In this document: positions 32,523 to 32,979 of the stretch, in pieces
How the letters are laid out: every line of letters starts with the position of its first letter
Position numbering within the stretch: the first letter of the stretch is position 1
Virus record (IMG/VR): IMGVR_UViG_3300020156_000002
Coordinates: 62,001 to 126,000 of that record
Direction: 5' to 3' (one strand)
DNA: 64,000 nucleotides
DNA from: a virus
Notes under the pieces: generated by a model
Databases searched by the model: none
Seen by the model: the letters and a program-made list of their open reading frames with translations, nothing else
What the model was told of the DNA's origin: nothing
Position numbers and translations under genes: made by a program

Positions 32523-32979
32523 CGGATGTTATTAACCGTAAGCTTTTTATCTTACGCTCTGGAAGTTTCCCTCATTTTCATCGATTGGTCATTTCCAATC
32601 CAGCCTAGCATATATATTCACCCTCGTTTAACGTTAGGCAAATAGGAGACTAGCCCTATTTGGAATAAACTTTATTTATCCGTGTAAACCACTCGTGGAG
32701 ATGTTTTGTTCTAAAATCTATTATTTTAGGTTCAATCTCTATGCGTTACGGTGACAGACAATCTTTGGTTGTCTGTTTACCTCGGTATTAGCTTGCTATA
32801 CTTATAAATTGTTATGGAGCAATTTAACTTCTTCAATTGCACCACATTTGACTAATTCGTCCGATAGAAAATACACTATATTTCTTTCTCTACAAAAACG
32901 TTATTATAAGATAGTTTAGCTTTTACCGATTTTGGTTTATGTTCATTAGATTATTTCTAATCTAAGCAGCAAATTGTTT
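32523..32979 (-). ncRNA. Probable self-splicing intron in the tape measure gene (group I-like ends)
   Basis: 457 nt with stops in the reading frame separate two halves of one protein. Cutting after T of AGT and after G of ATCCG joins SMNVDFS to KGIKEIAEG with no lost codon, as in related tape measures. The intron starts AAACAATTTGCTG: its TTTGCTG (complement of 32967-32973) can pair with 5' exon CAGT (G-U at the splice site) and 3' exon AAA, the P1/P10 arrangement of group I introns. A perfect P2-like hairpin TTAGATTA-GAAA-TAATCTAA follows, and at least five more stems occur. TAACGT and ACGTTA could form P3. A clear P7 was not found and there is no internal endonuclease gene. No GUGYG start, so group II is unlikely. 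Confidence 0.7.

What the first reader, a model, noticed from the sequence alone, without database searches (positions are those of the whole stretch)
32523..32979. ORF-less intron-like element splits the tape measure gene
Removing exactly 457 nt fuses two frames into one 1848-aa tape measure without losing a conserved residue. Exon ends follow the group I U/G rule, and a single guide TTTGCTG pairs with both 5' exon CAGT and 3' exon AAA. A perfect P2-like hairpin and many stems are present, but I could not assign P7, so the class may be divergent. An intron in the tape measure gene would couple splicing to tail assembly.
Basis: partly seen in the sequence, partly recalled or inferred. Interest (0 to 1): 0.8.

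Follow-up and report, generated by a model that had tools for sequence, protein, structure and literature searches.

The report
Self-splicing intron in phage tail gene
A 457-base stretch that cuts a phage's tail-length gene in two is almost certainly a self-splicing group I RNA intron without its own gene; such introns are already known in phages, including in this kind of gene, but the standard RNA library does not recognise this branch of them.

Summary
On the minus strand, removing exactly 32979..32523 (457 nt) fuses two ORFs into one 1,848-aa tape measure protein (TMP). Pfam PhageMin_Tail is split cleanly at the junction (exon 1: profile 3-95; exon 2: 93-201; fused: 4-201), and uninterrupted TMPs of other phages align straight through it. 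The insert is a group I intron. A covariance model built from 12 relatives without the window finds it at E = 7.7e-51, with the 3' end at the predicted splice site. In those relatives 34 of 55 pairs covary (0 of 500 shuffles). A relative (L052) has the intron at the same TMP codon with a GIY-YIG homing endonuclease gene in the P5 loop, where the window has only 132 nt. Rfam RF00028 misses it and its relatives, but also scores the proven T4 td and nrdB introns below cut-off and misses Twort's, so that negative means little. TMP introns with proven splicing are known in ICP1. Hence: a new, ORF-less member of a known kind. Splicing itself was not tested, and nothing supports a coupling to tail assembly.

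The parts
32980..33822 (-). Tape measure gene, exon 1 (281 codons)
   Evidence: PF10145 profile 3-95; PHROG tape measure families
32523..32979 (-). Group I intron, 457 nt, no ORF
   Evidence: model R1 built without it hits 32808-32522 at E 7.7e-51; helix set canonical
27819..32522 (-). Tape measure gene, exon 2
   Evidence: PF10145 profile 93-201
32967..32983 (-). P1: 5' exon CAGU (32983-32980) with internal guide GCUG; UUU of the guide (32973-32971) for P10 with 3' exon AAA
   Evidence: sequence; guide UUUGCUG at 32973-32967
32946..32965 (-). P2 hairpin UUAGAUUA-GAAA-UAAUCUAA (GNRA loop; same GAAA loop in L052)
32933..32939 (-). P3 5' strand UAAACCA, pairs with UGGUUUA at 32691-32685
   Evidence: P3 covaries in relatives, 6 of 7 pairs
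32925..32929 (-). P4 5' strand UCGGU (in conserved AAAAUCGGU), pairs with ACCGA at 32786-32782
32790..32921 (-). P5 with 132-nt L5 extension; the position where L049 and L052 carry homing endonuclease(-like) genes; no recognisable remnant
32750..32781 (-). P6 (GGU/ACC and ACAGAC/GUCUGU)
32740..32744 (-). P7 5' strand GCAUA, the G-site helix
   Evidence: P7 100% paired in 12 relatives, first G-C pair invariant
32698..32739 (-). P7.1 (GAGAU/AUCUC) with inner hairpin CUAAAA/UUUUAG: class IA extension
32685..32691 (-). P3 3' strand UGGUUUA
32613..32684 (-). P8 domain (three-way junction) and J8/7
   Evidence: fold; similar extension in L049
32608..32612 (-). P7 3' strand UAUGC
32559..32603 (-). 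P9 / P9.1 / GAGG-GAAA-CUUC hairpin
   Evidence: lies in the 97-nt block 93% identical to the Yersinia phage phiR1-37 gyrA intron
32537..32556 (-). P9.2 CGUAAG...CUUACG
32523..32523 (-). last intron nucleotide, omega G
   Evidence: model R1 runs to 32522, its last column being the first exon base

Best explanation
The 457-nt insert is a class IA-type group I intron without an ORF. After transcription of the tape measure operon its RNA is expected to fold into P1-P9, bind guanosine at the P7 G-C pair, cut after the exon's CAGU and join it to AAAGG..., giving one mRNA for the 1,848-aa tape measure protein. Shown by computation: boundaries, split domain, full core structure with covariation in relatives, and a relative at the same site. 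Inferred: that it splices in vivo, that it does so unaided, and that the ORF-less form arose by loss of a homing endonuclease gene from L5, or never had one.
For: Independent covariance model hit, E 7.7e-51, ending at the predicted 3' splice site. Covariation in 12 relatives without the window: 34/55 pairs with changes on both sides, 91.7% of cells paired vs 73.4% in shuffles, 0/500. P7 100% paired in those 12 (GCAUA/UAUGC, GCGUA/UACGC); GACUA/UAGUC and GAGUA/UACUC seen by reading in L026/L030/L073 and L060. Window helices P2-P7.1 canonical in the same registers. Exon domain restored exactly. The insert contains a stop and changes frame. Same-site relative with a GIY-YIG gene in L5. Known relatives split gyrA in phiR1-37, AR9 and BpSp; AR9's is annotated as a joined three-piece CDS.
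Against: No RNA data. RF00028 does not match at E up to 10, nor does it match the relatives tested; but RF00028 scores the proven T4 td and nrdB introns at 40.3 and 35.7 bits, below its cut-off of 50, and does not list Twort's nrdE introns at E 0.1. Model R1 in turn does not hit T4 or Twort, so no single model bridges the two; the link rests on shared architecture. P1 is only 4 bp.
Confidence: 0.95

Rival explanations
1. Degenerate group I intron: the fold is that of an intron but splicing has been lost, and the phage makes two protein pieces.
For: No ORF, no experimental splicing; long AU-rich L5 and P8 extensions.
Against: Core helices intact and canonical, catalytic P7 G-C and end nucleotides kept, exons joined exactly at a mid-domain position where separate pieces would break PhageMin_Tail.
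Confidence: 0.04
2. Group II intron, IStron or other mobile element.
For: Insertion in a coding gene.
Against: No group II or other Rfam family matches; ends are AAACA...AUCCG, not GUGYG...AY; no transposase or reverse transcriptase ORF in the 457 nt; group I model hit.
Confidence: 0.005
3. Translational bypass or an intein: the insert stays in the mRNA or is translated.
For: A gene interrupted without an ORF.
Against: 457 nt is not a multiple of 3 and has a stop after 5 codons, so it is no intein; the insert belongs to a structured RNA family inserted in unrelated genes.
Confidence: 0.005
4. Sequencing or assembly artefact.
For: Single uncultivated virus record.
Against: The insert is a proper member of a family found in many phages, and an unrelated contig (L052) has it at the same codon.
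Confidence: 0.005

Closest known systems
Intron at the same TMP site in L052 (IMGVR_UViG_3300019370_000091)
   Same: Same codon and phase (MDMDFA|DGLQ vs MNVDFS|KGIK), same P2 GAAA hairpin, P3-P9 layout, AAAAUCGGU motif
   Different: Carries a GIY-YIG homing endonuclease gene in L5; the window has 132 nt of non-coding P5/L5
gyrA introns of Yersinia phage phiR1-37 and Bacillus phages AR9, PBS1, BpSp
   Same: 3' core up to 93% identical over 97 nt; same P7; found by model R1
   Different: Other host gene; phiR1-37's has an ORF upstream of P3
Spliced introns of the ICP1 tape measure gene (PMC10448857)
   Same: Introns in a phage TMP; an intron can be empty of a homing endonuclease gene; splicing shown by RNA-seq and RT-PCR
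   Different: Other phage; sequence not compared here
T4 td and nrdB group IA introns
   Same: Order P7, extra hairpins, P3', P8, P7' seen in the RF00028 alignments
   Different: Not found by model R1

Membership tests
Group I intron | Conserved core P3-P4-P5-P6-P7-P8 with the P3/P7 pseudoknot | tested here: met
   Canonical helices in the window; covariation in relatives; model hit E 7.7e-51
Group I intron | G-binding G-C pair in P7 | tested here: met
   GCAUA/UAUGC, first G-C pair invariant in 12 relatives
Group I intron | 5' exon ends in U paired with G in P1; intron ends in G | tested here: met
   CAGU|...GCUG...AUCCG|
Group I intron | Match to Rfam RF00028 at gathering score (a usual annotation criterion, not a defining feature) | tested here: not met
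   No match; the proven T4 td and nrdB and Twort nrdE introns fail it as well
Group I intron | Guanosine-initiated splicing | not testable with these tools
   Needs RNA
Class IA | Extra P7.1 (and P7.1a/P7.2) between the P7 5' strand and the P3 3' strand | tested here: met
   GAGAU/AUCUC with inner hairpin; covaries in relatives. Subgroup IA1/IA2/IA3 not resolved
Mobile (homing) intron | Intron-encoded homing endonuclease | tested here: not met
   No ORF in the insert, no recognisable remnant; a same-site relative has one

The most novel reading that the evidence does not exclude
The introns of this branch, repeatedly placed in the conserved PhageMin_Tail domain of tape measure genes, are kept because splicing sets the timing or amount of full-length tape measure protein rather than as pure parasites.
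Probability: 0.04. Interest if true: 0.7.

Novelty: new member of a known kind. Interest (0 to 1): 0.3.

Why it matters
It restores the correct tape measure gene of this phage and shows a branch of class IA-type introns, present in about 70 viral stretches of IMG/VR, that Rfam RF00028 does not report; annotation pipelines relying on it will call split genes as separate proteins. The window/L052 pair (same codon, empty versus GIY-YIG-bearing) is a clean natural comparison for gain or loss of homing genes.

Tried and rejected
Rfam at gathering score and at E up to 10 on the window, and on relatives: no group I hit of this branch. Searching IMG/VR with the window's own TMP segment: no relatives; with the L052 segment: only itself. 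Search for a homing endonuclease remnant in L5 by blastn and tblastn: only chance-level matches. A second copy of the intron in the same 130,653-base record: none. GIY-YIG gene in the record: none. Weak R1 hit at 62086-62193 (10.8 bits, E 0.087): taken as chance, not followed. Bridging R1 to the T4 and Twort introns: no hit. Considered and rejected: group II intron, IStron, intein, bypass, artefact. Searches failed (size limit, coding slip, wrong frame) and were repeated correctly.

Full report
OBSERVATION. The gene lies on the minus strand. ORF 33822..32962 runs into the insert and stops there; the frame resumes at 32522. Taking out 32979..32523 gives one frame of 1,848 aa with a single terminal stop. 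The insert is 457 nt, not a multiple of three, and has TAG as its sixth codon, so it cannot be read through as protein. Both parts match PHROG tape measure families. Pfam PhageMin_Tail (PF10145) gives the sharpest test: exon 1 alone covers profile 3-95 with 38.4 bits, exon 2 alone 93-201 with 62.2 bits, and the fused protein 4-201 with 96.4 bits. In 'phages', 119 records hold at least 80% of the fused 225-aa query in one place, and uninterrupted TMPs align through the junction.

WHAT IT IS. A blastn search found the 3' end of the insert 93% identical over 97 nt to a non-coding stretch inside the split gyrA of Yersinia phage phiR1-37, and 86-92% to the gyrA introns of AR9, PBS1, Goe21 and BpSp; AR9 gyrA is annotated as a CDS of three joined pieces. 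A motif scan (RAYGAAAATGAGGGAAACYTCCAGAG) found 71 stretches in IMG/VR. Reading these side by side gave the core: AAAAUCGGU (J3/4-P4), CUAAUACCGAGGU (J5/4-P4'-P6), AACGCAUAG (P7) and AAAAGAUAUGCUAGG (J8/7-P7'), i.e. the group I R and S elements in a variant form. In some relatives they have the usual letters AACGACUAG and AUAUAGUC (L026, L030, L073).

TEST OF THE STRUCTURE. I aligned 12 relatives without the window, wrote down P3 to P9.2 including the P3/P7 pseudoknot, and counted pairs: 55 pairs, 34 with changes on both sides, 91.7% of cells paired against 73.4% in shuffles, covariation score 0.518 against 0.177, none of 500 shuffles reaching it; sliding the partner by 1-3 columns destroys it (32-44% paired). 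The structure was written from one of these sequences, which favours it over slid versions, but not to this degree. A covariance model from this alignment, without P7, was then run on the window: one hit, minus 32808-32522, 164.4 bits, E 7.7e-51; the next best is E 0.087. Its last column, the first exon base, falls on 32522, the base predicted by the protein frame. The model could not place the 5' strands of P3 and P4 in the window because of the long L5; these were assigned by hand. In the window itself P2, P3 (UAAACCA/UGGUUUA), P4 (UCGGU/ACCGA), P5, P6, P7 (GCAUA/UAUGC), P7.1 and its inner hairpin, P9 and the GAGG-GAAA-CUUC hairpin are all canonical. In that call P9.1 and P9.2 were entered one base off; the model alignment shows them as GAUUGG/CCAAUC and CGUAAG/CUUACG.

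WHY RFAM IS SILENT. RF00028 does not report the window or the relatives tested. As a control I ran it on introns long known to splice (own knowledge; T4 td and nrdB are annotated as group IA introns; the two Twort nrdE introns are cited as self-splicing, Landthaler 2002, in PMC12908238): T4 td and nrdB score 40.3 and 35.7 bits, under the cut-off of 50, and the Twort introns are not listed at E 0.1. The literature says the same: the RF00028 seed is incomplete and phage variants may be missed (PMC11878797), and no single alignment is likely to capture group I diversity (PMC6125680). So this negative does not count against membership. Model R1 does not hit the T4 or Twort introns either.

THE SAME SITE ELSEWHERE. 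L052 has an intron of this branch in its own TMP at the same codon and phase: MDMDFA|DGLQGLVNG against MNVDFS|KGIKEIAEG. Its L5 holds a GIY-YIG-type homing endonuclease gene (MYGQIYAIKNKINNKVYIGQT...; type read from the motif); L049 holds another endonuclease-like ORF at the same place. The window has 132 nt there, with no recognisable remnant. Other TMPs are hit at other points of PF10145: exon 2 begins near profile 27 (L023), 64 (L026), 87 (L008) and before 150 (L014), and TMP genes of Javan355 and phiCDIF1296T are hit too. L026 has four hits within 1.7 kb, with short TMP-like exons between them.

MECHANISM. Expected: ordinary group I splicing, with P1 CAGU/GCUG and the guide's UUU ready to pair with AAA of exon 2 (P10). 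Splicing as such is inferred. The ORF-less state may reflect loss of an endonuclease gene, an intron never invaded, or help from an endonuclease elsewhere; an HNH_3 endonuclease lies far away in the record, with no evidence linking it to this site. I found nothing that supports a link between splicing and tail assembly.

NOVELTY. Introns in phage TMP genes with splicing shown by RNA-seq and RT-PCR are published for ICP1, including an intron empty of a homing gene (PMC10448857). Group I introns in phage tail and capsid genes are known (PMC3706429). This is therefore a new member of a known kind.

Noticed in passing
L026:1113-2806 (minus): Four introns of this branch in 1.7 kb of one tape measure gene, leaving TMP-like exons of only tens of codons.
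   Followed up: partly
window 52311-53444 (-): 377-aa protein matching PHROG 'HNH endonuclease' (E 2.5e-78) with CapR and DUF4379 zinc-finger domains, next to the portal gene.
   Followed up: no
window 41749-42900 (-): 383-aa protein matching PHROG homing-endonuclease families, no Pfam match.
   Followed up: no
L089:1204-1854 (record position about 28,900, outside the window): HNH_3 endonuclease gene in the same virus record, apparently free-standing.
   Followed up: no
window 34844-35893 (-): Integrase-family gene inside the structural module, between the tape measure gene and a large fibre gene.
   Followed up: no
L060:3728-4152 and L073:7595-7890 (minus): RF00028-type group I introns in the same contigs as introns of the branch RF00028 misses; in L073 the two are about 100 nt apart.
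   Followed up: no
L035:172-761: ROOL RNA (272.8 bits) in a contig that also carries two introns of this branch.
   Followed up: no
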